A DNA stretch of 22,569 nucleotides from a virus. Shown one piece after another: positions 2,224 through 22,569 of this stretch. Below the pieces are notes generated by a model. The model was given only the letters and a program-made list of their open reading frames with translations. It did no database searches and was not told the DNA's origin. Location: IMG/VR virus record IMGVR_UViG_3300032249_000721, positions 1 through 22,569 of that record; one strand, written 5' to 3'. The position numbers and the translations under genes were made by a program. Positions within the stretch are counted from its first letter, which is position 1. Each line of letters opens with the position of its first letter.

Positions 2224-2405
2224 TTATTGCGATCCCTCCAGGCTTTTCGGGCGGACATGGCTGCGATAAACAGACCTAAAATTAGCGCGCTTACACGCAT
2301 TCCCGTCTCAAGTTGCGGGAGCAGACTGAAAAGCACAGTGCCGAGGCTGGTAGCCACGCCGACAAATGGCCGCGACAGAAATTCTATTGGGTCGTGGAGG
2401 CTCAT
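2220..2405 (-). CDS. Small two-helix membrane protein, holin candidate
   Basis: This 61-residue protein has two hydrophobic segments, about residues 13-29 (PFVGVATSLGTVLFSLL) and 37-51 (RVSALILGLFIAAMS). They are separated by a short polar loop, and the C-terminus is basic (ARKAWRDRNK). That layout matches small holins, which open the inner membrane at the end of the phage cycle. Its position among late tail-fibre genes is usual for lysis genes. No endolysin or spanin is adjacent, so the lysis role is inferred from size and topology alone. Both ends overlap neighbouring genes by four bases (ATGA at each junction), indicating translational coupling. Confidence 0.6.
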   Translation of the reverse strand: MSLHDPIEFLSRPFVGVATSLGTVLFSLLPQLETGMRVSALILGLFIAAMSARKAWRDRNK

Positions 2406-2884
2406 TGAGGAAGCCGATCGGCCCGCAAGAACGATCCTGCGCGGATGGTGTTGGTGTTTGTGGCAACGCTAGAACGGAAGGTAACGGAGATGCTTCCGGC
2501 GTTCGTCCCGGCCAAAACGTAGAACTGTTGCGGCAGCGATCGCGCAGTTGTTACCGCCAGTGCGTTTTCGTTAGTAAGCGCGTTGGTGCTTGGTGTGTAG
2601 ACGCTTGACGAACCGTTCCAAAGGCCAAAAACAGTTGCGTTGCTGGCAACCACGGTCAGGGCTGTGCTGGTTGAAGCAGCTTCAAGCGTAGGAACAAACG
2701 TGACCGCATAACGCGCATTAGCCTGAGTGGCGAAAGTCAGGTTGCTAATAGTGACAGCATTGGTCTGGTTCGTAATTGACAGGTTGTTTGTCAGCACGCT
2801 GAAAACGGTTGCCGCGAAGCGGTTGGTCTGCGCGCTGGCGGTAGCGGCAGCGGCAAGAAGGAATAGGATGGCGAGGTATTTCAT
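2402..2884 (-). CDS. Secreted beta-rich protein with signal peptide, fibre-head-like
   Basis: This 160-residue protein begins with a classic Sec signal peptide: MKYLAILFLLAAAATASAQT has a Lys, a Leu/Ala core and an A-S-A cleavage site near residue 19. The rest is Asn/Thr-rich and beta-like. Its middle and end (ARYAVTFVPTLEAAS ... TIRAGSFLRADRLPQ) resemble the C-terminal fibre-head domain seen in many phage tail proteins, whose last strand ends in AGSxLRAxRL. A signal peptide on a virion-type domain is unexpected. The protein could act at the host surface (receptor masking or superinfection exclusion) instead of on the particle. It starts four bases after the preceding stop, without a clear Shine-Dalgarno sequence. 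The signal peptide is well supported and the function is not known. Confidence 0.7.
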   Translation of the reverse strand: MKYLAILFLLAAAATASAQTNRFAATVFSVLTNNLSITNQTNAVTISNLTFATQANARYAVTFVPTLEAASTSTALTVVASNATVFGLWNGSSSVYTPSTNALTNENALAVTTARSLPQQFYVLAGTNAGSISVTFRSSVATNTNTIRAGSFLRADRLPQ

Positions 2885-2888
2885 ATTG

Positions 2889-3521
2889 TTAGGTGGTGAT
2901 TAGGCCGCCGTCATTGGCGACTGAAAGTGTGTAAGCGGTGCCATTTGCAGACCGCATGGCCAGTCCTGTGGGCGCGGAGGTGGCCTCGGACGCAACCACC
3001 GACTGAAGCAGGCCGTCATTGTCAGCAGAAAATGCCCACACCGTCCCGTTGGCGCTGGCTAGGCGAAAGCCGCTTGCCACGATCTGCACCAGGGCTTCGC
3101 CCTCGGAGCCGCGAATCACGTCGTTATAGACGATTGCGGCAGTCGGCAACGTGCTGGAAGTCGTGCCGCTTTCGCTCCACTGAATTTCCACTTTGAGCGT
3201 CACGCTCTCCTCGTCATCAGTGGGGAACTCCGCATCAAGGTTTGCGGTATTGAGATTGAGGTCAAACTGGTAAACCGTAGCCGTGCCTGTGCCTGTTTTT
3301 GTGAACGAGGCGTCATTGGCCAAAAAGTCCCCGGCAAAGGTCTTTTTAAGGCCCATCTGCCCGCTTGCCCCAGCGGCGAGCTCCACCACCGCGCCGGATC
3401 GCACAAACTGAACTTCGACCGGCACGACATCGCGGCGGGTGAAAGACAGCGTTGTCACCCGCTGTAAAAGAACTGGTGAAACAACGAACTCGCGGCTGTC
3501 TAGGTTGACGTAAACGCGCAT
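2889..3521 (-). CDS. BppU-like tail/baseplate protein
   Basis: The ATG at 3519-3521 is preceded by GAGG at a good distance, so I choose it over the in-frame GTG six codons upstream; the product has 210 residues. The N-terminal half (MRVYVNLDSREFVV, then VVPVEVQFVRSGAVVELAAG, then GMK-type LKKTFAGDFL and ATVYQFDLNLNT) has the strand pattern of a BppU-type beta-sandwich that attaches fibres to the tail. The C-terminal third contains two short copies of a related unit (LASANGTVWAFSADNDGLL and MRSANGTAYTLSVANDGGL), a short tandem repeat that may form a beta-prism or bind the next fibre. It lies between the cupin gene and the signal-peptide protein. The adaptor role is inferred from this domain and from its position. 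Confidence 0.62.
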   Translation of the reverse strand: MRVYVNLDSREFVVSPVLLQRVTTLSFTRRDVVPVEVQFVRSGAVVELAAGASGQMGLKKTFAGDFLANDASFTKTGTGTATVYQFDLNLNTANLDAEFPTDDEESVTLKVEIQWSESGTTSSTLPTAAIVYNDVIRGSEGEALVQIVASGFRLASANGTVWAFSADNDGLLQSVVASEATSAPTGLAMRSANGTAYTLSVANDGGLITT

Positions 3522-3551
3522 GGCCTTGCCCTCGCCCACCGTGTCAAAGCG

Positions 3552-3980
3552 TCAGCGGCTCTCTATATCCCAGTGAAAAGGAAACCGATACGGCCCAACC
3601 CGCTCCTCGTCTGGGTTTTCGGGATCGTAGGGATGCGACGGCATATTCAATATTGCGGCCTCGCGGTGGCCGTGGCATGGCGTAAAGCCGTGGTAAATGC
3701 CCGGCGGGATGGTCAAAAGCTGCGGGTGGTCGGCGGCAAGGATGACGGTCTGTGACTTGCTCGTGGTCGCGTCGAACAGCCCGACCTTGGCCGCGCCGGC
3801 CACGCAATACCAGCGATCCCACTGCCGAGCGTGCTTGTGCCACGCTTTGATTACCCCTGCTGCTGCCGTGGTCAAGTAGGCTTGGCCGAATCCGTGCGCG
3901 TCATCGGTGGCGCGGAAAATCTCGGTCAGGCGTCCGCGCTCATCGAGGTGCGTTGTGAGTTGGCGGATGTCGGCTAACAT
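3552..3980 (-). CDS. RmlC-like cupin (dTDP-sugar 3,5-epimerase family)
   Basis: This protein has 142 residues from the ATG at 3978-3980, which overlaps the upstream stop by seven bases; an ATG eight codons earlier (4004) is also possible. The pattern HLDERGRLTEIFR, GQAYLTTAAAGVIKAWHKH, then a cupin strand WYCVAGAAKVGLFDA, and finally IPPGIYHGF and SHPYDPENPDEER, is that of RmlC-type dTDP-4-dehydrorhamnose 3,5-epimerases and related small cupins. His48, His50 and His97 are candidates for the active-site pocket. Classical RmlC is longer (about 180 residues), so this compact form may be an epimerase or isomerase on another nucleotide sugar. It ends a three-gene block with a glycosyltransferase and a DUF3431 protein, supporting a role in sugar supply or modification. 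Confidence 0.8.
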   Translation of the reverse strand: MLADIRQLTTHLDERGRLTEIFRATDDAHGFGQAYLTTAAAGVIKAWHKHARQWDRWYCVAGAAKVGLFDATTSKSQTVILAADHPQLLTIPPGIYHGFTPCHGHREAAILNMPSHPYDPENPDEERVGPYRFPFHWDIESR

Positions 3981-4663
3981 GGGCAGCCCAAAATGTTCCA
4001 CCATGTGCGTTCAAGGATTTCGCCGCTGCGCTCCGTTTTACGCGCCAAGGCTTGCACGTCCTTATACCACTGAAGCGGCCTGCCACGGATTGCATCCCGG
4101 CTGGCGGCAAACTGTGCGCCGGGCCGCCACCAAACCCTTTGCATATCGAGCTGGCCTAATTGCTTCCAGAATTTGCCACAAAATTCGGCCTCTGAACCAA
4201 TGGCATTCGGGTTGTCGGTTTTTGGCAGGGTGCAAAAGGTTACAGCGCCAAGGCTTTCAACCACCTCTTTGAAGTCGTGGCAATGGTCTTGAGGGTGGCC
4301 TTGCAGAAACACAGTGACCTCGGCCAACGTGTCGTAACGCCAGATAATGTGGTTTAGCCACTGCTCGGCCTCCCTGCCTTTTGGACAGTTGGCGGCGTCC
4401 TTTTCAACGTGTGCGCTAATTTCCTTGGTAGGATCAGGCTGGCGGGTCAGTTCTGCCATTTCGCGCACGAAAGCCATGACGGCGCGCATTCGGTCAAGCT
4501 GGGCATAAAGGTCTTCGCCGTGGTGATGCTGGCCACGGTTGACCTTGTGCGCGCTGGCCTGCGTAGGCTCCCCGCAGCGGTAAATCGTTGCCATAGGCCG
4601 CCAATGGTCGGGCAACCAATCAATCCGTTCGCGGTGGGCTGCAATGACGATTTCTTTTTGCAT
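3974..4663 (-). CDS. DUF3431 family protein
   Basis: This 229-residue protein matches the DUF3431 pattern: an N-terminal strand with IVIAAHRERIDWLPDHW and IYRCGE, then GREAEQWLNHIIWRYDTL followed by EVTVFLQGHPQDH (96-127), and late PGAQFAASRDAIRGRP (181-196) with LERTWWNILG near the C-terminus. DUF3431 members occur in fungi, bacteria and some viruses and usually sit with glycosyltransferases; their reaction is unknown. The ATG chosen (4661-4663) overlaps the preceding glycosyltransferase stop by one base (TGATG), indicating coupled translation. An in-frame ATG five codons upstream is less likely. It has no signal peptide or membrane segment, so it is cytoplasmic. A glycosyltransferase-like role is a guess from context. 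Confidence 0.78.
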   Translation of the reverse strand: MQKEIVIAAHRERIDWLPDHWRPMATIYRCGEPTQASAHKVNRGQHHHGEDLYAQLDRMRAVMAFVREMAELTRQPDPTKEISAHVEKDAANCPKGREAEQWLNHIIWRYDTLAEVTVFLQGHPQDHCHDFKEVVESLGAVTFCTLPKTDNPNAIGSEAEFCGKFWKQLGQLDMQRVWWRPGAQFAASRDAIRGRPLQWYKDVQALARKTERSGEILERTWWNILGCPC

Positions 4664-5685
4664 CAGCAGGGCATCCAAGGTTGCTGCCGCTGCCGCAAAT
4701 GGCCGCGGTATTCGCCCTCCGTTTCGTGATACGCCCGGTGGTGGACTACCTCGCCCTTGGCATCCCTCTTAACGTGGTCGGCTGCCGTGTGCGGGATAGC
4801 GGCAATGCAAAGGCCGGCGGGATGCCATCTGTGCCAGCAAAGGAATAGGTCTTGCGTGCCTTTGCCCTGGTAGCCTTCAAAGCTGGCCAAGGCCAGCGCA
4901 CGGGCAGACATCAGGGTGCAGCCAAGGCCGCACCAATCGCTTGGCACAATGGCCCCTTTGCCAATTCCAGGGTAGGCAAAGTCCATCCAGCCGCGCCGCC
5001 TCCAACCGTGTTTGCCGCTCACTTCAAAGACGTTCCCGTCTGGTGGGCATTTCTTCACGCGCTCGGCCAGACGCCCGAGCCGCTTACCTTCGCGCTCCCC
5101 GATGGCTTTGTCCTGGCAATCCTTGAGCCGGGCGCGGCAAGCCTCTAGGACGCGGACAAGTCGCGCTGGCAGCTTGCGCTCCTTTTCGGTGAAGTCCTCG
5201 GCAATGGGATTCTGCGGACTGCCGTTGCCTCCCAAGAACAAGCCATTGGGGTAAGTGACCGCCGCCACCTGATAGTAAGGCGACCCGTCCTCAGTAGGCA
5301 TGGCCAGCGCCCACTCGGCCACTCGGAGAGCATCTGGTGGGACAAGGTTGTCGGCCTCGACAGACCACAAGGCCGTGGCTCGGATCTTTCTCGCTGCGGC
5401 GAAAGCGGCCCCTTGAAGCGCTGCAATCCGCATTTGTGCTGGTTCTTTGTAATCCTTGCCCTCTACCCCGCCGTCCTCCATTGGCAGGGCAATGGCTTGG
5501 ATGCGCCAGCCCTCGGGCAGTTCGTGGCGAGCCACCTCAACGGCAGCCTTGGCCTCTTCACTTTGGTCAGTAGCCAGGATAAAGTGCGCCTCGGCGTGGT
5601 GGCCGGCGGCGGCGGCAATTCGCCTTAAAAACTGCGGCCAACAGTGGAAGTAACTTTTGGTTGCGTATGTCGCTATTGCCAGCAC
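4663..5685 (-). CDS. GT-A-type glycosyltransferase-like protein
   Basis: This 340-residue protein starts at GTG (5683-5685). The N-terminus enters directly into a Rossmann-like strand (LAIATYATKSYF), so no longer form is needed. Features of a family-2-like GT-A fold include the metal-binding acidic motif LWSVEADNLVPP (Glu110-Ala-Asp112), then CGLGCTLMSARAL (252-263). After these comes GTQDLFLCWHRWHPAGLCI, with Asp279 as a candidate base, and a closing His (DHV, 303-305). A Lys/Arg/Glu-rich insertion (about 165-213) looks helical. It probably transfers a sugar from an activated nucleotide donor in the cytoplasm. The acceptor is unknown: fibre protein, virion protein or host glycan. It lies 18 bases after the Ser/Thr-rich fibre gene and is coupled to the DUF3431 gene downstream. 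Confidence 0.75.
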   Translation of the reverse strand: MLAIATYATKSYFHCWPQFLRRIAAAAGHHAEAHFILATDQSEEAKAAVEVARHELPEGWRIQAIALPMEDGGVEGKDYKEPAQMRIAALQGAAFAAARKIRATALWSVEADNLVPPDALRVAEWALAMPTEDGSPYYQVAAVTYPNGLFLGGNGSPQNPIAEDFTEKERKLPARLVRVLEACRARLKDCQDKAIGEREGKRLGRLAERVKKCPPDGNVFEVSGKHGWRRRGWMDFAYPGIGKGAIVPSDWCGLGCTLMSARALALASFEGYQGKGTQDLFLCWHRWHPAGLCIAAIPHTAADHVKRDAKGEVVHHRAYHETEGEYRGHLRQRQQPWMPC

Positions 5686-5703
5686 TCGGCAGCGGAAGCC
5701 GTG

Positions 5704-7590
5704 TCAAAGCTCGGGAGGCATGGCTGGCGGCAGGGCCGTGCTGTTGCGAAACTCAACCCAAGTTAGCGGGTTTGCGTTGGTGCTTAAGGCTAAGTTTCGC
5801 ACGTCTTTGATTGGTTGCCACACCGCCACTGACTGCGACAACCCCGCATTAACGACACTGGCCGCGCCGTTGAATCTGGTGGTTTGCCCATCTACCCTGT
5901 TCTTGTAAACGCCTGGCTGCGCGGTCTGCACAAAGGTTTCGCCATCGCCGGCCGACCCTCCAAAGTGTCCGATAGGCTGAGAAAGCGCGACCGTTTGCGT
6001 TGCTCCCTCCACGCCGATGGCCGCGCTCTTTGTAGTCGCCTTGCTCGTTGCCCCGTCGATTGAAGAAACGGCGGTTGTTGTAGTTGTCCAAGTAATCCGA
6101 CTGCCCTCAATTGTGCGGTGCTCATTAGTCGCTGGAAACATGGTGGTTGCCAGCCGGTGTCCGCCGTCCAAGGCATAAAGGTCGGCAAAGAAAACATTGC
6201 CAACCGAGGTGGCGTTTGCCGTGATCCAGCCACCGACCGCGCCCTGCACGTCTGCCCCGCTGGTTCCGTATTTAACTTGTTGAGCCTGCCCGCCTGCCCC
6301 TATGGCTGCGCGGACGGTAGGTAAAACCGTGTTGGCCGTTACGCCGCTTGAACTGAAGCTGGCGAATTCTGTTATTACAGTGCCTGTGGCAAAGTTTATT
6401 AGGCCGCCTTCGGTTCCAGAGGTGCTGTCTGAGTAGCTTTCCGTTTGGGCGGCTTGAATCGTTTGAATTAGCGTGTAGGTCGATACGCTTTCCACCGCAG
6501 CATGAAAAGTCAGTGTTCCGACCCTGCGTGTAACCACAGTTGAGTAAGCGGCAAAGTCTCGGGCCGTTACGGTGCTTGTCGTGCCTCCGTGCGTTTCGTC
6601 TATCTGGAAGTCTAGGTAGTTCGTCCCAACGGTGCTTTGCACTGTCGTAAGTCCTACAACAGTCAGGGTTTCGGTAACTGGCGGAAAAGACACATAATAG
6701 GCGGTTGTTGCGACAACGGAAGTTGTTCTGCTGTTGGTCATCACAAACAAAGACGTTGACTCAATAAGCTCGATGGAAGAAGTCGGGCGCGTCGAGTGTG
6801 CCGAAAATTTATCTTCCGTGACCAATCTTGGAGAAATGGTCAGTCGTGTGCTTGATGCGGCTGAAGCGGTTGCCGCACTAAAAGAAGCCACGTTGCTAAT
6901 TGTCTGCGTTAACACATAAATGACTTCGGCCAGCTCTGGCCGTCTAGTGTTAGCTTGAAATACGGTATCGGGCAGCGCCGTTAGCGTAATCGTTTCTTCA
7001 AGGTAGGTGGTGGCATCAACGGTTTCTGTGCTGGTGGAAAGCGATGTTCCAAGGCTTGTTGTCTGGCTGCCTGCTGTCTGAAAAAATGCAACGCTTGTTT
7101 GGTCGCTGCCGTAGGTATTTGTGGAAGTTGTCCAAATTGAGTTGAAAGGGCCGTCTTCTGTGATAACCGCCGTCACCTCATAGACCTGCTCAAATGTTTC
7201 GGTTGTGCTCGTTTGAATCTGTGCGGTGTTTGCGCTTGCCGTAGAAAAAGAGCTAGAGGTGGAAAAAGAACTAGAGTCTAAGTTTGTCGAAACTGCCGTT
7301 GTGGTTTCCAGTTCGTCGTTTGTGTTGTATTCTAAGCCGCTGTTGTTAATGGTTCCAGCCGCGATGTAATTCTCACTGCTTGAGGAGGATGAGGAGGTTG
7401 TGCCTCCTGAGATTCCCACTACGGTTTGACTGAAATATGTATAAGTGGTCAGCCCTGATCCTGTTGCGCTGTCGGTCTGGCCTTCAATCGATCCGCTTAA
7501 GTTATAGCTGCTTTCCGAAAAGCTAGACCCCTCGACAACGGTGCTACCCGTTAATCGCGGCACGCTGCCTTGAATCGTCCAGTCGATCAT
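5704..7590 (-). CDS. Ser/Thr-rich tail fibre or tip protein
   Basis: This 628-residue protein is dominated by Ser and Thr, most densely in residues 1-130, which include a run of seven Ser. Lys and Arg are very scarce in the first 200 or so residues. The whole chain alternates polar and hydrophobic residues as in extended beta structure, without recognisable enzymatic motifs. Position right after the distal tail genes and before the sugar cassette suggests a central fibre or tip protein, perhaps in the slot of lambda gpJ, although no gpJ/TipJ-like domain is visible. The last 200 residues are more globular (GGHRLATTMFPATNEHR, VWQPIKDVRNLAL). The ATG overlaps the preceding stop by four bases (ATGA). 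GC is lower than in the head genes. The many hydroxyl side chains make it a candidate substrate for the neighbouring glycosyltransferases. Confidence 0.7.
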   Translation of the reverse strand: MIDWTIQGSVPRLTGSTVVEGSSFSESSYNLSGSIEGQTDSATGSGLTTYTYFSQTVVGISGGTTSSSSSSSENYIAAGTINNSGLEYNTNDELETTTAVSTNLDSSSFSTSSSFSTASANTAQIQTSTTETFEQVYEVTAVITEDGPFNSIWTTSTNTYGSDQTSVAFFQTAGSQTTSLGTSLSTSTETVDATTYLEETITLTALPDTVFQANTRRPELAEVIYVLTQTISNVASFSAATASAASSTRLTISPRLVTEDKFSAHSTRPTSSIELIESTSLFVMTNSRTTSVVATTAYYVSFPPVTETLTVVGLTTVQSTVGTNYLDFQIDETHGGTTSTVTARDFAAYSTVVTRRVGTLTFHAAVESVSTYTLIQTIQAAQTESYSDSTSGTEGGLINFATGTVITEFASFSSSGVTANTVLPTVRAAIGAGGQAQQVKYGTSGADVQGAVGGWITANATSVGNVFFADLYALDGGHRLATTMFPATNEHRTIEGSRITWTTTTTAVSSIDGATSKATTKSAAIGVEGATQTVALSQPIGHFGGSAGDGETFVQTAQPGVYKNRVDGQTTRFNGAASVVNAGLSQSVAVWQPIKDVRNLALSTNANPLTWVEFRNSTALPPAMPPEL

Positions 7591-8225
7591 GGCCCGAGGA
7601 CATAATAGATGTCGTAGGGCGATTGGCCGGGGGAGGCCGCAGGCTCGGCGCTAGTGACCAGCCACGTCCTCGTTGCCAGCACAATATGCCCCGAGCCTAT
7701 CACCCGATAGGCTTGGCCTTCAGAAAAGAGCCCAAACAAGTATTGCACAGAGCTTGCAATGCCAAACTCCACCGGCTGCTGCACGGTGGGCGCGGTGCCG
7801 TTGATGACGATGGTAACGCCAGTAACAGCCTCCCCGTCCGTGGCAATCACGGCCTTGGCATACCACAGCCCCGTGCCGGGATAGGTAAATTCCTCGTCCC
7901 AATTTGCAGGCAAGATGCCGTTGAGGGTTCCAGGGCGGACACGGATCAGGTAAGGCGGTGTTTCGTCTTCGGGCGAAGCCTCGGGATCTACTTGGGCCTG
8001 CAAGTCCCAGGGCTGCGGGGTGCTTGGGGTAGAGCTGCCTCCGCGAGGTAAAGACGCGGCAAGACCGATGTAGGTGCCTGTGCCATCTTGCCGCACCGTG
8101 ATCCCGCGCTCACCCTTTGGTTTGTTACGCTTTATCTCGGTGATGATGGCATTCAGTCTCTCGGACCCAAGCTCTTTAGTCAGCGGACGGCCAGGCGTGA
8201 ACCGAATGGAATCGAATTGCGACAT
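7587..8225 (-). CDS. Distal tail protein of unknown function
   Basis: This 212-residue protein has a helical basic N-terminus (RPLTKELGSERLNAIITEIKRNKPKGERG), a Pro/Ser-rich linker (SSTPSTPQPWDL), and a beta-rich body beginning with PYLIRVRPGTLNGILPANWD. The body contains a Gly-rich GTGLWYAKAVIATDGEAV turn and ends in YDIYYVLGP. I do not recognise a named family. Position between the tape measure group and the Ser/Thr-rich fibre suggests a tail-tip or baseplate hub component. It begins four bases after the preceding stop with GGTGAG just upstream. Its first residues (MSQFD) are nearly the same as those of the upstream neighbour (MSQFE). No membrane segment or signal peptide is visible. Confidence 0.55.
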   Translation of the reverse strand: MSQFDSIRFTPGRPLTKELGSERLNAIITEIKRNKPKGERGITVRQDGTGTYIGLAASLPRGGSSTPSTPQPWDLQAQVDPEASPEDETPPYLIRVRPGTLNGILPANWDEEFTYPGTGLWYAKAVIATDGEAVTGVTIVINGTAPTVQQPVEFGIASSVQYLFGLFSEGQAYRVIGSGHIVLATRTWLVTSAEPAASPGQSPYDIYYVLGP

Positions 8226-13682: not shown

Positions 13683-15434
13683 CTATGGCTTGGAGTCAAA
13701 GGCATCAGGGTTCCTGCGCTTAAAGATTTCTAGCCCATACTTGTAACCCTCTGAGCTGTTTTCTATGGCGTAAGTGTCATCGGTTGGAACGGCTGGATTG
13801 AAAAACGGATGCTCATGCCGAAAGACGATTTCGCTTGGCACTATCCACCCGTGTTTTTTTGCTCGGTGGGTGAACTCGTTGTCGCAAAACACGCCGCGAT
13901 ATTCGCCACTGACAATGCCGCCCTTGTGTCCCATCGCCGCCAGGGTCGGGCGGGTGACGCAAAAAGTGATCAGCAAATCGTCGGTGCGGTATCCGTCACC
14001 AATTTGCAACACCGCCGGCCTGTTTAGCTTTTCGGCCAGCGCCTGCCAGATCAATTCATCCCAAAACAGGCAGGGCTCAAGATCGTCTTGTATGGTCAAA
14101 ATGATTTTGCCGCTGCTTGATCGCACTGCGGCGTTGTAGTTTTCGACCAAAGTTCCGCCCACGGCGTCTAAGTTCCCGGCGGGTGAAAGCGCGTGGCGAA
14201 AACGCCCCAAAATGTCCCGTGTCTCGGTGTCATCCTCGGAAAACCCAAAGATGTATTCGACGCTTTGCGGGTCTTTGGCTGCCTCCAACCACTTCTTGCG
14301 CGTCTCGGCGGCTTGTTGCGGCCTGCCCCGAGTCGGGTGGCACACGCTGATCTTGGCCCCGCACTTCTTAAACCACTCCAACTCAAACTGATCGCCCTTT
14401 TCGGTTTCTCCGTTGGCGCGCAGGGCGCAGGCATAAAGCCCGACGCCTCCAAACCCATAGACAACCGGGCGATGCGTCCACGGCACAATCTCAGGCACAG
14501 GCAGGGCCATAAAAGCCCTGGCATAAGCCAGCGCATCTTGGTTCTCTCCGTTGTCCAAGCTGGTGGCCGCAAGCTGCGCCAGTGCCTCCCTGCGCCAAGG
14601 CGAAACCTTGTAGGCTTCATGCAGGAGTGACTTTTTGGCGGCGAACACTGGTGCTCGCATGGCGAGTTGCAAATAGAGTTCGTAGCGTTCATCTCCCGAG
14701 AGCCCGTCATGTTTGAGTGCCTCGATGGCCAGCTCCATGCCCCGCGCATCGTTCTTCATGCCGAAATTCTCTAGGCTTCCGTAGAAAAGCCAGCGCGGGT
14801 CTTTGTCCCAATCGGGCTGCGCTGCGATGATGCGCCAGTTGCGGGCGTTGCCCTGCTTTTCGGCGGCGGCATCTTTCTTTTCGTCGGGCGCGTGAACAAT
14901 GCGGCAGTCCTCCCAGCGCACCTGGCCGTCTCCAGACTTATCAAAGGGTTCTAGGTGTTCATGCACCGCGCCCTCCCACTTGGCCGTCCCAGCCTTCCAG
15001 ACGCGCTCGCGCAAGAGGTTGAGGCCATTATTGGTCAGACGGTAGGGAATCATAGCAATCGTGTTGCTGGGGTCCGTCTCGCGCAAATGCTGGAGGATGG
15101 TGTTGCAGGAGTCGGGCTCAATAACATCGTCAGTATCAGCCCACATGAGCCACTGGTGGCCGTCTGCCTCGGCCATGTCGGTGGCCATCTGCCGGGCGGC
15201 GGCGAAATCGTCAACGTGGTCCCAGAACTGAAAAGCCTCGGCGTTTTTGTATTCGCCTGTTTTGCACCCCATTTCTCGGGCAATGTCTAGAGAGCGGTCT
15301 GGCTCCCTGCCCCCACAGGCGCGAACAACGTAAATGTGAGGCGTGAGATTTTGGAAAGCCTTGATAAAACGCCCGATATAACCCTCGCTATTTCCGCAAA
15401 TAGCGACCAACGCCAGAGAATGCTGTGTGTCCAT
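13683..15434 (-). CDS. Two-domain glycosyltransferase with central helical repeats
   Basis: This 583-residue protein appears to hold two GT-A domains. The first (about 1-200) begins LALVAICGNSEGYIGRF and has the donor-metal motif MWADTDDVIEP (Asp100-Thr-Asp-Asp103). It also has WEGAVHEHLEP (153-163), the HE motif typical of GT2 enzymes that carry TPR-like repeats, as in SunS-type protein glycosyltransferases. A helical middle part (about 215-345) resembles TPR repeats. The second domain (about 360-583) starts KISVCHPTRGRPQQA, has ENYNAAVRSSSGKIILTIQDDLEP (Asp450-Asp451) and ends with CDNEFTHRAKKHGW and a His pair (RHEH). It probably adds two sugars in sequence. It is placed between the capsid gene and the head-tail genes, so a virion protein could be its acceptor. 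It is preceded by the capsid terminator and lacks a clear Shine-Dalgarno sequence. Confidence 0.82.
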   Translation of the reverse strand: MDTQHSLALVAICGNSEGYIGRFIKAFQNLTPHIYVVRACGGREPDRSLDIAREMGCKTGEYKNAEAFQFWDHVDDFAAARQMATDMAEADGHQWLMWADTDDVIEPDSCNTILQHLRETDPSNTIAMIPYRLTNNGLNLLRERVWKAGTAKWEGAVHEHLEPFDKSGDGQVRWEDCRIVHAPDEKKDAAAEKQGNARNWRIIAAQPDWDKDPRWLFYGSLENFGMKNDARGMELAIEALKHDGLSGDERYELYLQLAMRAPVFAAKKSLLHEAYKVSPWRREALAQLAATSLDNGENQDALAYARAFMALPVPEIVPWTHRPVVYGFGGVGLYACALRANGETEKGDQFELEWFKKCGAKISVCHPTRGRPQQAAETRKKWLEAAKDPQSVEYIFGFSEDDTETRDILGRFRHALSPAGNLDAVGGTLVENYNAAVRSSSGKIILTIQDDLEPCLFWDELIWQALAEKLNRPAVLQIGDGYRTDDLLITFCVTRPTLAAMGHKGGIVSGEYRGVFCDNEFTHRAKKHGWIVPSEIVFRHEHPFFNPAVPTDDTYAIENSSEGYKYGLEIFKRRNPDAFDSKP

Positions 15435-19095: not shown

Positions 19096-19263
19096 TCAAA
19101 GAGCCGACTTCCTGCGCTTGGCCCACATGGCCAACGCCGCAGCGCGGGCCTGATCAGAGGTTCTAGCCTTAGACGCACCGCGCCCGGCAGATCCACCAAG
19201 CCGCCCCGCTTTGGCGGCGTCAATAACTTTAGGCAGCTTTTTTCCGCAATGTGGGCATTTCAT
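19096..19263 (-). CDS. Small CxxC zinc-ribbon-like protein, 55 residues
   Basis: This short gene starts with ATG at 19261-19263 inside the last codons of the ligase gene (35-base overlap, different frame) and stops at TGA 19096-19098. The product begins MKCPHCGKKLPKVIDAAKAG, with one CxxC pair, then GGSAGRGASKARTSDQA and AALAMWAKRRKSAL. This is the common small phage pattern of a half zinc-ribbon followed by a Gly/Ser/Arg-rich turn and a basic helix that could contact DNA or RNA. Only one CxxC is present, so metal binding would need dimerisation. The stop lies 16 bases before the gpW-like start. It is missed by any length cut-off of 60 residues. Its function is unknown. Confidence 0.72.
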   Translation of the reverse strand: MKCPHCGKKLPKVIDAAKAGRLGGSAGRGASKARTSDQARAAALAMWAKRRKSAL

Positions 19264-20152
19264 AATTTACTTCCGTGTCGCAAGCCGCCCGCCACCCAAT
19301 AAACTGAGGGAAGCGCGGTGCGTCCTTGGCCCCGCTGGGCTGGTGTGAAAACTTAACGATGCGCCCGACAAGCGATGTCCTGTGACGCCAAGCGATTTCT
19401 CGGTCTAATCCTCCAGCAACATGATTGTAGGCAAGGCGAAACTCAACGCCCGTATCAAGCACGCGAACAATAAAGCCACCAAGCTCGCCGCGCCCGGCCA
19501 TTCCTGCTCCGGCTGCACTGCGCTTGGTTCTGCCAAAAGCGTCAAGCGTTGGCGCGTTTTGATTGCTCAAGCCTTCGTAAGTGTCAATAACCACACCTTC
19601 AGAGTCCTCAAAACGCTTAACCTTAAACAGCCATCCCTCGCGCTCGGTTGATCGTCCGCATTTATACGGCCCCATTGGGTCGCGCACCATGATTCCCTCA
19701 AATCCCCGCAAAACGCAAAACTGCTCATATTTTGAAAGATCCTCATGGTTGTGGATCAAGGCTGGCAAAACCTTTTCCATGCGGTCGGCATTGGGCAAGC
19801 CCTCCAAAGACTTTACCCTTTGAAAATATGGCTCGGTGGGATCAACAACAAAATCAAACGCGCAGAAAAGAAAGTCCGGCTGGCCGTGGTGGCGTCCAAT
19901 CCCGCTGCTAATCTCGGAAAAATTGCCGTGTCTAAGCATGATTTCCCCGTCGCACCCGTCTGGCACATTTGCCTCGATCCAATCCCTTGCAAATATATTT
20001 GGAACGGGCTTGAAAGACCTGGTTAATGCGCGGCCCCCGAGCTTTATGCACCGTATGCCGTCAAGTTTTGGTGTTGCTAAAACAGGAAAGCGGACGCTGC
20101 TGGGAATGTAGCGCGCTGCAAGCATTGGCCTGCTAATGATCTGCGTGTTCAT
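19229..20152 (-). CDS. ATP-dependent DNA ligase
   Basis: This protein has 307 residues from the ATG at 20150-20152; a TTG six codons upstream is possible but has weaker support. It is a minimal ligase of adenylation domain plus OB domain. Lys29 in KLDGIR is motif I (adenylated lysine). FLFCAFDFVV (94-103) is motif III, FEGIMVRD (151-158) motif IV and WLFKVKR (174-180) motif V. The OB part has GGFIVRVLDTGVEFRLAYN and the end KDAPRFPQFIGWR. All catalytic residues seem intact. It seals nicks in duplex DNA. Placing a replication/repair gene between terminase and portal genes is unusual. GC is about 50 per cent against roughly 57 for terminase, so it looks like a transferred moron with its own promoter-like site. 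Confidence 0.9.
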   Translation of the reverse strand: MNTQIISRPMLAARYIPSSVRFPVLATPKLDGIRCIKLGGRALTRSFKPVPNIFARDWIEANVPDGCDGEIMLRHGNFSEISSGIGRHHGQPDFLFCAFDFVVDPTEPYFQRVKSLEGLPNADRMEKVLPALIHNHEDLSKYEQFCVLRGFEGIMVRDPMGPYKCGRSTEREGWLFKVKRFEDSEGVVIDTYEGLSNQNAPTLDAFGRTKRSAAGAGMAGRGELGGFIVRVLDTGVEFRLAYNHVAGGLDREIAWRHRTSLVGRIVKFSHQPSGAKDAPRFPQFIGWRAACDTEVNYEMPTLRKKAA

Positions 20153-20158
20153 GCGCCC

Positions 20159-20186
20159 AAGATAACGCAAACAGCTTGCGCGTCAA
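20159..20186 (-). promoter_or_regulatory. Candidate sigma70-type promoter for the ligase gene
   Basis: On the minus strand TTGACG (20181-20186) and TATCTT (20159-20164) are 16 bases apart. They match the -35 box at 5 of 6 and the -10 box at 4 of 6. Transcription would begin a few bases from the ligase ATG, giving an almost leaderless mRNA. No Shine-Dalgarno sequence is seen. Unproven. Confidence 0.45.
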
Positions 20187-20195
20187 GTGCTGTTT

Positions 20196-21872
20196 TTACT
20201 CTGTTGGAGTAGCGTTTGCCGCCGAATACTGCGACATGATGGAGTCAATAAGCACTAGGCCCATCTTTTCACAGTCGGCCAGATGGTTCTCCCCAAGGCG
20301 GGTCCACTTGGCCACACCCTCTTTCTCGACCAGCGCCTCGCCCTGCAACTGCGTCACATAGTCCTTGGCAATGTCCCTCGGCAGATACCATTTGCCCCGC
20401 CCGTCGCGGAGCACATCGTGGTAAAGCCTCGCCTGCCAAAACTCGGCGTCGAATTGAAGCATCCAAATATTGTGGCCAGCCCCAAGAATCTGCTGGAACT
20501 TCCACGGCTCGCGCAGTCCCTGGCTAACCGTGCGCCCCTTGGCCGCGCAGAAGAGGCCACCCGAGCGTGCGACAAAATCGTAAACCCCTGCCGGCGTCTT
20601 GGCGGCGTAGCCCGAATCTACTACCCCCTTAAAGCATTTGTAGTGGCGAAACTTTTCCATGATCAAGTCCCAGCCAATCGCTGCGCCGTAATCAACCAAG
20701 TAGCTGCTGCCATCCTCGTGCAACTCGCGGATGATCCACCACAATTCGGTCTGTTGAACGTCCACGGACATAATGCGGCCCAGCATCTTGCCTTCGGGCG
20801 GCTCTCCGATGGTGTATCGAGGCGAGGCGTCCACCCGCTCGCGGATCATGGCCGTGGTGATAAGCGAACCAGCAGCTTTCCAAGGCAGGGCCAGCTCACG
20901 GTTAAAGAAGTCCTGCAACCCGCCGGGCGTTTCGCGGTCTTGAAGAAATTTGACGGCCAGGTCCGACCACTTGCGCCACGGCGCGTAGAGTGACGATAGG
21001 TGATAGCTTCTGCGCCCTGGTTCTGCGGCAAGGTCAGTTGCCCGCCACTCGCCGCGTTCTAACATCTCCGCCTTGTCGGCCTCGGTGTGCGCGTGGTTGC
21101 AGGCCGGGCAGTGGCATCGCGCCGTTTCTGCAACGGCTTCCATGTTCCACGCGGAATCTTGCTTGGCCTCCTGCGACCATTTGATTGTCTCCCACTCCAT
21201 GACAAAGGCTTCGCCGCAGCCGGCGCACGGCACAAAGTATTTGCGCTGGTCGCCCTTGAGCCATTCCTCCCAGATCGCGCCGTCTTCGTAGGTCGGGGTC
21301 GAGGTCGTGATGATGATGTGCTGCGGATAGGTGGCCACGCGGGCCTCGGCCAACTGCAAGGGCGCTGACTCCTTGCCGCCTTTCGCCGGGAACTTGTCTA
21401 GCTCGTCCATGCACAGGGCGGCAATCGAACGAGAGGAAAGCGAGGCCGGCGAGTTGCTGCCCGTGAACCAAACGCTCATTCGGTCAAAGTGCTGCTCTAA
21501 AAGTCTATACTTGTCAGGGTCTGGCTCCTTGTGCCGCGCCAGCGTCGGGTTCTGGTCAATGAGCGGCATCCACCGCGTTTCAGAAAATGACCTGGCCAAG
21601 TGCGTGGACGGCATGACCCACAGGCAGGGCGCAGGGTCATTGTCTAACTTGTAGGCCATGCCCACGATGATTGCGGTGGTCTTTGAGGTCTGCGCCCCCC
21701 AGACCAAGGCCAGCCGGCGCACACGGTCATCAGCAAAGCATTCCAGCACCTCGCGCACATAAGGCGTGCGAGTCGTAAGGTAGCTGCCGGGTTTGTTGGT
21801 GATGCGTTCGGATAGCTTGAGGTTGCCCTCGGCCCACTCGACCACCCCGAGCTTGGGAGGCTCAAGGGTCAC
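20196..21872 (-). CDS. Terminase large subunit (GpA family)
   Basis: This protein has 558 residues from the GTG at 21870-21872, which has GGTGAGG about eight bases upstream. A longer frame is open far upstream through the small subunit gene, but its content is low-complexity Gly/Ser/Arg and not terminase. The ATPase has a variant Walker A WGAQTSKTT (58-66), Walker B IAALCMDE (150-157) and coupling motif TTSTPT (189-194). A zinc-knuckle Cys set follows (Cys216, Cys219, Cys255, Cys258), typical of lambda gpA relatives. The RNase H-like nuclease has Asp371 (SVDVQ), Asp419 (GVVDSGY) and Asp533 (HLADCE). It translocates DNA into the prohead and cuts it, probably at cos. It starts 26 bases after the small subunit stop. 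Confidence 0.93.
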   Translation of the reverse strand: MTLEPPKLGVVEWAEGNLKLSERITNKPGSYLTTRTPYVREVLECFADDRVRRLALVWGAQTSKTTAIIVGMAYKLDNDPAPCLWVMPSTHLARSFSETRWMPLIDQNPTLARHKEPDPDKYRLLEQHFDRMSVWFTGSNSPASLSSRSIAALCMDELDKFPAKGGKESAPLQLAEARVATYPQHIIITTSTPTYEDGAIWEEWLKGDQRKYFVPCAGCGEAFVMEWETIKWSQEAKQDSAWNMEAVAETARCHCPACNHAHTEADKAEMLERGEWRATDLAAEPGRRSYHLSSLYAPWRKWSDLAVKFLQDRETPGGLQDFFNRELALPWKAAGSLITTAMIRERVDASPRYTIGEPPEGKMLGRIMSVDVQQTELWWIIRELHEDGSSYLVDYGAAIGWDLIMEKFRHYKCFKGVVDSGYAAKTPAGVYDFVARSGGLFCAAKGRTVSQGLREPWKFQQILGAGHNIWMLQFDAEFWQARLYHDVLRDGRGKWYLPRDIAKDYVTQLQGEALVEKEGVAKWTRLGENHLADCEKMGLVLIDSIMSQYSAANATPTE

Positions 21873-21898
21873 GGCCCTTGCCTCACCCCAGGCAAAGT

Positions 21899-22438
21899 CT
21901 AAGCCGTGGCGGTCGCCTCGCTCAAGGAGCTGGGCAATGTCCCCAGATGCTTCTTCATCAACTCCGTGGCCTGCCGGCCCCAAGGGAACGTCGAGAAATC
22001 CTGCCTCAGTGCCGAGATTAGCGAACGAATAGCCGCTACTGTCTCCTGCTTGTTGAGCGTTGCGTTCTTCATCGCCAAAAATGCTGCCAGCTCCTGCTCG
22101 GCCTGCGCTGCCGCCTTCCGACTGTCGCGCCAAGCCCCGGCCAGCTCGGCCACTGATCGGCTGTTCATGTCCTGGCTGTTCGCTGCCGCTTTCCATAGCT
22201 CGTAGTGTCGGATTTCCCCCTCGGCTGCGCGATCCAGCCTTGGCCTTGCCCCCATTGCTAGGTTTTCCGAGGCCACCAGCCCGCTTATTCTTGCCCCTTT
22301 GTTTCGGCGGACGTTGGCCGCTACCCACGCCTTGGCCGCGTCCACCGAGTCCACCGGCATCCCCCGGCTTTTCCAGATCGACACGCTCGCTGGATTTGAG
22401 TCCAGCGCGTTGGCTAATTGGATTTGGGTCAGGGCCAT
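21899..22438 (-). CDS. Terminase small subunit (Nu1-like)
   Basis: This 179-residue protein has an N-terminal helix-turn-helix pattern (LTQIQLANALDSNPASVSIW, then KSRGMP), as in DNA-recognition subunits of lambda-type terminases. A middle basic/helical part with repeated Ala/Glu/Arg (AGAWRDSRKAAAQAEQELAA) is likely to oligomerise. The C-terminus (QATELMKKHLGTLPSSLSEA) would contact the large subunit. It binds the packaging site and directs the large subunit to cut. It is the first gene of the visible operon and directly precedes the large subunit. No strong Shine-Dalgarno sequence is present. The family is inferred from HTH and position; small subunits are poorly conserved. Confidence 0.8.
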   Translation of the reverse strand: MALTQIQLANALDSNPASVSIWKSRGMPVDSVDAAKAWVAANVRRNKGARISGLVASENLAMGARPRLDRAAEGEIRHYELWKAAANSQDMNSRSVAELAGAWRDSRKAAAQAEQELAAFLAMKNATLNKQETVAAIRSLISALRQDFSTFPWGRQATELMKKHLGTLPSSLSEATATA

Positions 22439-22569
22439 TGGGCATTAGTTGAGGCTTTTGCGAGTCGCATTATCAAAAAGGCTTATTGAGACAAGGTTGG
22501 GGCTGATAGTTGTTTATCCCGACCATTCGCAAAAAATTATGGGCCATTTTCTGCCTGTCGTGACCTCCA
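22439..22569 (-). other. Leader/intergenic region upstream of terminase, no gene resolved
   Basis: This holds the space before the small terminase gene. Short minus-strand frames here are open for only 10 to 32 codons and run off the edge, so the end of another gene cannot be told from noise. An 11-base near-palindrome TGCGAGTCGCA (22459-22469) is present. So is an inverted pair TTTTGCGA (22456-22463) and TCGCAAAA (22527-22534). A GATAAT hexamer exists without a good -35 partner. In lambda this place holds cos, so packaging or control sites are plausible but unproven. Confidence 0.4.

What the first reader, a model, noticed from the sequence alone, without database searches (positions are those of the whole stretch)
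3552..5685. Sugar-handling cassette inside the tail-fibre cluster
Seen: three overlapping or abutting genes encode a GT-A-like glycosyltransferase, a DUF3431 protein and an RmlC-like cupin, flanked on both sides by fibre genes and coupled by one-base or seven-base overlaps. Known: glycosyltransferases and RmlC cupins make and transfer nucleotide sugars, but they are not part of tail assembly. Inferred: this block may decorate a fibre or virion protein, or change host surface sugars, and may be an undescribed phage glycosylation unit.
Basis: partly seen in the sequence, partly recalled or inferred. Interest (0 to 1): 0.72.

Follow-up and report, generated by a model that had tools for sequence, protein, structure and literature searches.

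The report
Phage tail-protein sugar-tagging gene pair
In a large group of uncultured, mostly freshwater viruses of bacteria, a predicted sugar-adding enzyme is gained and lost together with one very variable, serine/threonine-rich tail-region protein, which suggests that these phages sugar-coat their own tails; two further sugar-related genes come and go around this pair.

Summary
The three genes exist as described. The 340-aa protein (4663-5685) is a GT-A-fold glycosyltransferase (AlphaFold2 + Foldseek; Pfam hit in 8 of 29 relatives). A DUF3431 protein starts at ATG 4663 and an RmlC/CapF-type cupin at ATG 3980, overlapping by 1 and 7 bases. But the trio is not the unit that moves. The core is the GT plus the gene before it (5704-7590), a hypervariable 628-aa protein about 30% Ser+Thr. 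In 79 of 80 IMG/VR relatives the GT abuts such a protein (the 80th is truncated), in either orientation and in unrelated phage types. In a GT-independent survey anchored on the tail-tube gene, all 32 GT loci have the Ser/Thr-rich neighbour; six close relatives without it lack GT, cupin and DUF3431. The tree needs 5 switches (at least 4 on supported branches), one visible as a clean block swap between 94.5%-identical genomes. GTs stay about 67% identical where their neighbours are about 17% identical. Cupin (42/80) and DUF3431 (8/50 records) are accessories. Most likely: a phage protein-glycosylation cassette that decorates a tail protein, the cupin tuning the sugar donor. Fold and linkage are shown; acceptor, sugar and virion location are inferred. 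Tblastn with the GT found nothing in 50,697 phage records.

The parts
5704..7590 (-). ST: hypervariable Ser/Thr-rich tail-region protein, 628 aa; proposed acceptor of the sugar
   Evidence: Same slot next to the GT in 79/80 loci, S+T median 0.30 against 0.14 for other ORFs; no family hit
4663..5685 (-). GT: GT-A-fold glycosyltransferase, 340 aa, GTG start
   Evidence: AlphaFold2 pLDDT 78, Foldseek to GT-A enzymes E 8e-8, PF13641 in 8/29 relatives, invariant E110, D112, D279, H299, H304
3974..4663 (-). DUF3431 protein (ATG 4663), probable second GT-A-like enzyme; accessory
   Evidence: PF11913 E 2e-13; weak model, best matches mostly GT-A or nucleotidyltransferase folds but E >= 7e-3
3552..3980 (-). 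Cupin of the RmlC/CapF C-terminal type (ATG 3980), probable nucleotide-sugar epimerase or isomerase; accessory
   Evidence: PF14667 2.5e-12, PF00908 2.4e-6; nearest solved relative 3ejk, dTDP sugar isomerase
7587..8225 (-). Conserved tail gene (g7587) that bounds the exchanged block on its upstream side
   Evidence: Kept in GT-minus relatives; L254/L252 homology breaks inside it
2889..3539 (-). Conserved downstream gene (g2889) that bounds the exchanged block on its other side
   Evidence: Kept in GT-minus relatives; homology resumes at its start

Best explanation
The block 3552-7590 is a phage protein-glycosylation cassette. The GT-A enzyme uses a nucleotide sugar to O-glycosylate the Ser/Thr-rich tail-region protein encoded just before it, probably before the tail is assembled. 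The cupin, where present, epimerises or isomerises a nucleotide-4-keto sugar so that a particular deoxy-sugar is attached; DUF3431, where present, probably adds or extends a sugar. The sugar coat would mask or tune a fast-evolving tail protein. Shown: GT-A fold, conserved putative active-site residues, linkage to the ST gene, exchange as a block. Inferred: acceptor, sugar, O-linkage to Ser/Thr, location in the virion, benefit.
For: GT next to ST in 79/80 relatives (80th truncated), including 12 loci with ST on the opposite strand, phages with SU10-type portals and relatives at about 42% GT identity. GT-independent surveys: ST slot with GT 32/32, short slot gene with no GT 6/6, no cupin or DUF3431 without GT; 5 switches on the tree, at least 4 on supported branches; block exchange between near-identical genomes. 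ST is hypervariable (17% median identity) while GT is conserved (67%) and ST keeps its composition: a generic acceptor rather than a sequence-matched partner. Cupin repeatedly beside the GT on either side.
Against: No direct evidence of a glycan or that ST is in the virion. High Ser/Thr partly reflects beta-fibre architecture: [ST]x[ST] alternation is enriched, as also in the tube and g2889, and distant phages have 25-28% Ser/Thr fibre-position genes without this GT. No glycosylation sequon is enriched. The sugar donor is unknown.
Confidence: 0.6

Rival explanations
1. Receptor-editing pair: ST is the receptor-binding protein and the GT alters the host surface sugar it binds, to block superinfection or free progeny from debris. 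The two are exchanged together because they are matched.
For: Explains joint gain and loss and the hypervariability of ST; phage GTs that change host serotype are known (PMC12619734).
Against: A matched enzyme should diversify with its receptor-binding protein, but GTs stay 60-95% identical while STs are about 17% identical. Proteins look soluble (max KD19 1.24) and no membrane partner lies in the block. The gene sits inside the structural gene block.
Confidence: 0.2
2. Hitchhiking: the GT is carried along only because it lies between ST and the next conserved gene, and acts on something unrelated (another virion protein, such as the collagen-like fibre, or a small molecule).
For: The exchanged block has fixed borders, so any gene inside would move with ST.
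Against: The GT is next to ST in inverted arrangements and in unrelated phage types, and no ST-type locus in the tube survey lacks it. Collagen-like runs occur in only 28/80 loci.
Confidence: 0.12
3. The GT is a non-catalytic chaperone or structural partner for ST folding, using a GT-A scaffold.
For: One gene is constantly paired with a variable tail protein; dedicated fibre chaperones next to fibre genes are common (general knowledge).
Against: Metal-motif, acidic and histidine residues typical of GT-A catalysis are invariant across the family, and a sugar-modifying cupin is repeatedly recruited beside it.
Confidence: 0.04
4. DNA-modifying glycosyltransferase (base hypermodification).
For: Known phage use of GTs (PMC12619734).
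Against: Located in the tail block and lost with a tail gene; no base-modification gene was recognised in this fragment, though most of its proteins have no family match and the fragment is incomplete.
Confidence: 0.02

Closest known systems
Mycobacteriophage virion glycosylation (Che8, Rita; Freeman et al. 2023, as cited in PMC11256854 and PMC12619734)
   Same: Phage-encoded glycosyltransferases, proposed to decorate the phage's own virion proteins.
   Different: There the capsid and tail-tube subunits carry glycans and the Maravista GT genes lie near the 3' end of the genome; here one GT is paired with a hypervariable Ser/Thr-rich tail-region gene and moves with it. GT homology between the two was not tested directly; tblastn of this GT finds no phage record at E 0.01.
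COLGALT1 collagen galactosyltransferase and other GT-A enzymes (SpsA, AvpGT, mannosylglycerate synthase)
   Same: Same overall fold; COLGALT1, a protein-modifying GT, is the best Foldseek hit (E 8e-8).
   Different: About 15% identity, TM-score 0.45 or less; COLGALT1 is larger, and the hydroxylysine acceptor has no counterpart recognised here. Not filed as a GT25 member.
RmlC / FdtA-QdtA / CapF C-terminal sugar cupins
   Same: Passes the Pfam cut-offs for PF14667 and PF00908.
   Different: Below the cut-off of FdtA and WbuC families; substrate unknown; coupled to a phage GT.
DUF3431 (PF11913)
   Same: Passes the family cut-off (E 2e-13).
   Different: Function undescribed; found in 8 of 50 GT records, often elsewhere in the genome.

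Membership tests
GT-A-fold glycosyltransferase (protein 4663-5685) | GT-A (Rossmann-like) fold | tested here: met
   75 PDB matches at E <= 0.001; those listed are nearly all GT-A enzymes; TM-scores modest
GT-A-fold glycosyltransferase (protein 4663-5685) | Acidic metal motif (DxD/ExD) after the fourth core strand, and conserved acidic/His residues near the C-terminal end of the domain | tested here: met
   E110 and D112 at the end of strand 105-110, D279, H299, H304 invariant in 29 relatives
GT-A-fold glycosyltransferase (protein 4663-5685) | Sugar transfer from a nucleotide sugar | not testable with these tools
   Needs an enzyme assay
GT25 (COLGALT-type) | Sequence-level match to the family | tested here: not met
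   No GT25 Pfam model among the hits of 29 members at E <= 10; no PDB profile hit
RmlC-type sugar cupin (3552-3980) | Score over the family cut-off | tested here: met
   PF00908 27.8 bits against cut-off 27; PF14667 47.3 against 28.7
RmlC-type sugar cupin (3552-3980) | Catalytic His in the motif corresponding to RGLH of RmlC and the HGF His | tested here: inconclusive
   H56 (KAWH) and H105 (HGF) are nearly invariant in 43 phage rows, but the correspondence to RmlC residues was made by eye from memory of the family
DUF3431 (PF11913) | Score over the family cut-off | tested here: met
   51 bits against cut-off 25
DUF3431 as a GT-A enzyme | GT-A fold | tested here: inconclusive
   Best matches are GT-A or nucleotidyltransferase folds, but E >= 7e-3 and model pLDDT 63
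Phage virion-protein glycosylation system | Phage GT linked to a virion-protein gene | tested here: met
   Linked to a tail-region gene in 79/80 loci; joint gain and loss; that ST is a virion protein is inferred from its position
Phage virion-protein glycosylation system | Glycan found on the virion protein | not testable with these tools
   Needs mass spectrometry
Serotype-conversion gtr cluster | Membrane flippase GtrA and membrane-bound GTs | tested here: not met
   The three proteins look soluble by hydropathy (max KD19 1.24) and no such partner lies in the block

The most novel reading that the evidence does not exclude
A widespread, uncultured, self-contained viral surface-glycosylation module: a conserved glycosyltransferase obligately paired with a hypervariable Ser/Thr-rich tail protein, exchanged between phages as a modular sugar-coated tail part, with swappable accessory enzymes (cupin, DUF3431, perhaps a sulfotransferase in L117) that change the glycan.
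Probability: 0.45. Interest if true: 0.78.

Novelty: new variant of a known kind. Interest (0 to 1): 0.62.

Why it matters
Phage virion glycosylation is known from few phages, and for capsid or tube proteins. Here an uncultured phage group, whose GT has no relative in 50,697 phage records, appears to carry a modular enzyme-substrate pair for a tail protein. It would mean that the surface of the adhesion machinery is diversified with the amount of Ser/Thr and attached sugar kept constant while the sequence is free to drift; it gives DUF3431 a candidate role; and it makes the question 'does a phage sugar-coat its own tail?' directly testable by co-expressing two genes.

Tried and rejected
(1) The trio as the mobile unit: rejected; cupin adjoins the GT in 42/80 and DUF3431 stands between them in 4. 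(2) Profile search of solved structures for the GT: no meaningful hit, hence the fold search. (3) Glycosylation sequons in ST: N-x-S/T at chance (460 against 465 expected), D-S/T-x at or below chance. (4) Mucin-like P/S/T pattern: rejected, [ST]P is depleted (z -12.9). (5) Collagen-like fibre as the universal acceptor: runs in only 28/80 loci, flanks permitting. (6) Relatives in phage records: none for three GTs of the family or for DUF3431; one weak cupin hit. (7) Bacterial genomes: three MAG contigs only. (8) Literature: no description of such a pair found in the held library, which is no proof of absence; Freeman et al. 2023 itself was not held. (9) The sign test on independent switches (4-5 pairs, all concordant because the two states are identical in all 36 rows) cannot reach 0.05 by construction. 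(10) No structure was predicted for ST: both jobs went to the GT and DUF3431.

Full report
THE OBSERVATION. The window is a 22,569-base IMG/VR virus record with its evident genes on the - strand: terminase (20196-22445), a DNA-ligase-like gene, a lambda-type portal, a capsid-type gene, tail genes, then fibre-type genes. The three reported ORFs are real. The GT starts at GTG 5685. DUF3431 most likely starts at ATG 4663 (TGATG overlap with the GT stop, one base) and the cupin at ATG 3980 (ATGTTAG overlap, seven bases), because relatives align from about there.

WHAT THE PROTEINS ARE. The 340-aa protein alone has no Pfam, PHROG or NCBIfam hit. Eight of 29 relatives match Glyco_tranf_2_3 (best 5.9e-6). 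An AlphaFold2 model from 29 relatives (pLDDT 78, low at 146-163 and 223-250) matches GT-A enzymes in the PDB: COLGALT1 at 8e-8, AvpGT, SpsA, mannosylglycerate synthase and others, and viral glycosyltransferases. TM-scores to the query are modest (0.45 or less), so the GT-A fold is secure but membership of a particular CAZy family is not. E110 and D112 (at the end of strand 105-110), D279, H299 and H304 are invariant. The cupin passes the PF14667 and PF00908 cut-offs and its nearest solved relative is named a dTDP sugar isomerase. DUF3431 passes its cut-off; its model is weak (pLDDT 63) and the best matches are mostly GT-A or nucleotidyltransferase folds at E >= 7e-3: suggestive only.

THE PARTNER IS THE GENE BEFORE THE GT. 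The GT has 116 relatives among the candidate stretches of IMG/VR (80 kept and read). In 79 of 80 its neighbour is a protein of 367-858 aa rich in Ser and Thr (median 0.30; other ORFs 0.14); the 80th, L048, is cut off by the contig end but shows a 174-aa, 25% Ser/Thr fragment there. Among loci in the common orientation the usual ST-stop to GT-start gap is 18 nt (30 loci). In 12 loci (L038-L047, L051, L052) ST is on the opposite strand, convergent on the GT, and a cupin precedes the GT. The pair is also found in phages with SU10-type portals (L053) and in relatives at about 42% GT identity (L117-L121, L124, L129). ST sequences are nearly unalignable (median pairwise identity 17%) while the GTs of the same phages are 67% identical. 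What ST keeps is composition: about 30% S+T and 5% K+R.

A GT-INDEPENDENT TEST. Because these loci were found through the GT, I searched with other genes. Portal-anchored records: GT in 19 of 34; three of the records without it (G019, G027, G029) keep the tail genes on both sides but have a 228- or 296-aa protein instead of ST, and no GT, cupin or DUF3431, while the other glycosyltransferase gene near the capsid gene (13683-15434) stays. Tail-tube-anchored: of 38 close loci whose slot could be read, 32 have an ST slot gene and the GT, and 6 (L250, L251, L252, L276, L282, L284) have a short slot gene and no GT; eighteen distant loci (about 27% tube identity) have a slot gene of about 340 aa with S+T near 0.13 and no GT. 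Fisher's exact test gives about 4e-7 (computed with 31 and 6; the final tally is 32 and 6), but rows are related, so the tree matters more: on a tree of the tube plus the next protein the state changed 5 times (at least 4 on supported branches), GT and ST states being identical in all 36 rows. L254 (GT+) and L252 (GT-) are 94.5% identical over 13.1 kb up to inside g7587, and homology resumes at the start of g2889: ST, GT and cupin left or arrived as one block.

ACCESSORIES. Cupin: directly after the GT in 26 loci, directly before it in 12, after DUF3431 in 4, not found in 38 of 80 (some truncated). In the tube survey no cupin and no DUF3431 occurs without the GT. DUF3431 occurs in 8 of 50 GT records, often elsewhere in the genome. 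L117 has a sulfotransferase gene downstream of its GT and a DUF3431 further on.

HOW IT MOST LIKELY WORKS. The GT adds sugar to Ser/Thr of ST; the cupin sets the donor; DUF3431 may extend the glycan. Shown: fold, conservation, linkage, block exchange. Inferred: acceptor, linkage, sugar, virion location, benefit. The main rival is a receptor-editing enzyme matched to ST as receptor-binding protein; the contrast between a conserved enzyme and a hypervariable partner argues against it but does not exclude it. Ser/Thr richness is partly explained by beta-fibre architecture: Ser/Thr alternate ([ST]x[ST] z 17), as also in the tube and g2889, and distant phages have fibre-position genes with 25-28% Ser/Thr and no such GT. 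So Ser/Thr content by itself is no proof.

KNOWN OR NEW. Virion glycosylation exists in mycobacteriophages (capsid and tail tube; as reported in PMC11256854 and PMC12619734). Tblastn with three GTs of this family finds no relative in 50,697 phage records, and only three MAG contigs carry it among 84,980 bacterial and archaeal genomes. I file it as a new variant of phage protein glycosylation: a co-exchanged pair of GT and tail-region protein. 'Freshwater' rests on the names of the MAGs and on general impression of the source data, not on a test.

Noticed in passing
window 13683-15434 (-): A second, 583-aa glycosyltransferase gene (Glycos_transf_2 E 8.5e-8 in the N-terminal part; the C-terminal part looks like a second GT domain by eye) lies next to the capsid-type gene and stays when the ST-GT block is lost; tblastn finds no match in phage records. 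It may modify a capsid protein.
   Followed up: partly
window 19229-20170 (-): A gene resembling an ATP-dependent DNA ligase by eye lies between terminase and portal, an unusual place.
   Followed up: no
window 2402-2884 (-): A fibre-region protein begins with what looks like a signal peptide (MKYLAILFLLAAAATASA), odd for a tail operon.
   Followed up: no
L117 9433-10224 and 11574-12329: A distant relative has a sulfotransferase gene (PF13469 2.2e-6) downstream of its GT, and a DUF3431 gene further on.
   Followed up: partly
L053 3850-4635 and L055 3862-4353: SU10-type relatives have a 51% and a 48% Ser/Thr ORF a few genes upstream of the GT pair.
   Followed up: no
L056, L061, L065 directly after the GT: A 544-591-aa ORF overlaps the GT end in these loci; the L065 copy has no Pfam match. 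It may be a further accessory gene.
   Followed up: partly
L116, L117, L118: The only hits in bacterial genome assemblies are MAG contigs labelled Burkholderiales, Betaproteobacteria and Chthoniobacter; these may be co-binned phage contigs, so the host is unknown.
   Followed up: no
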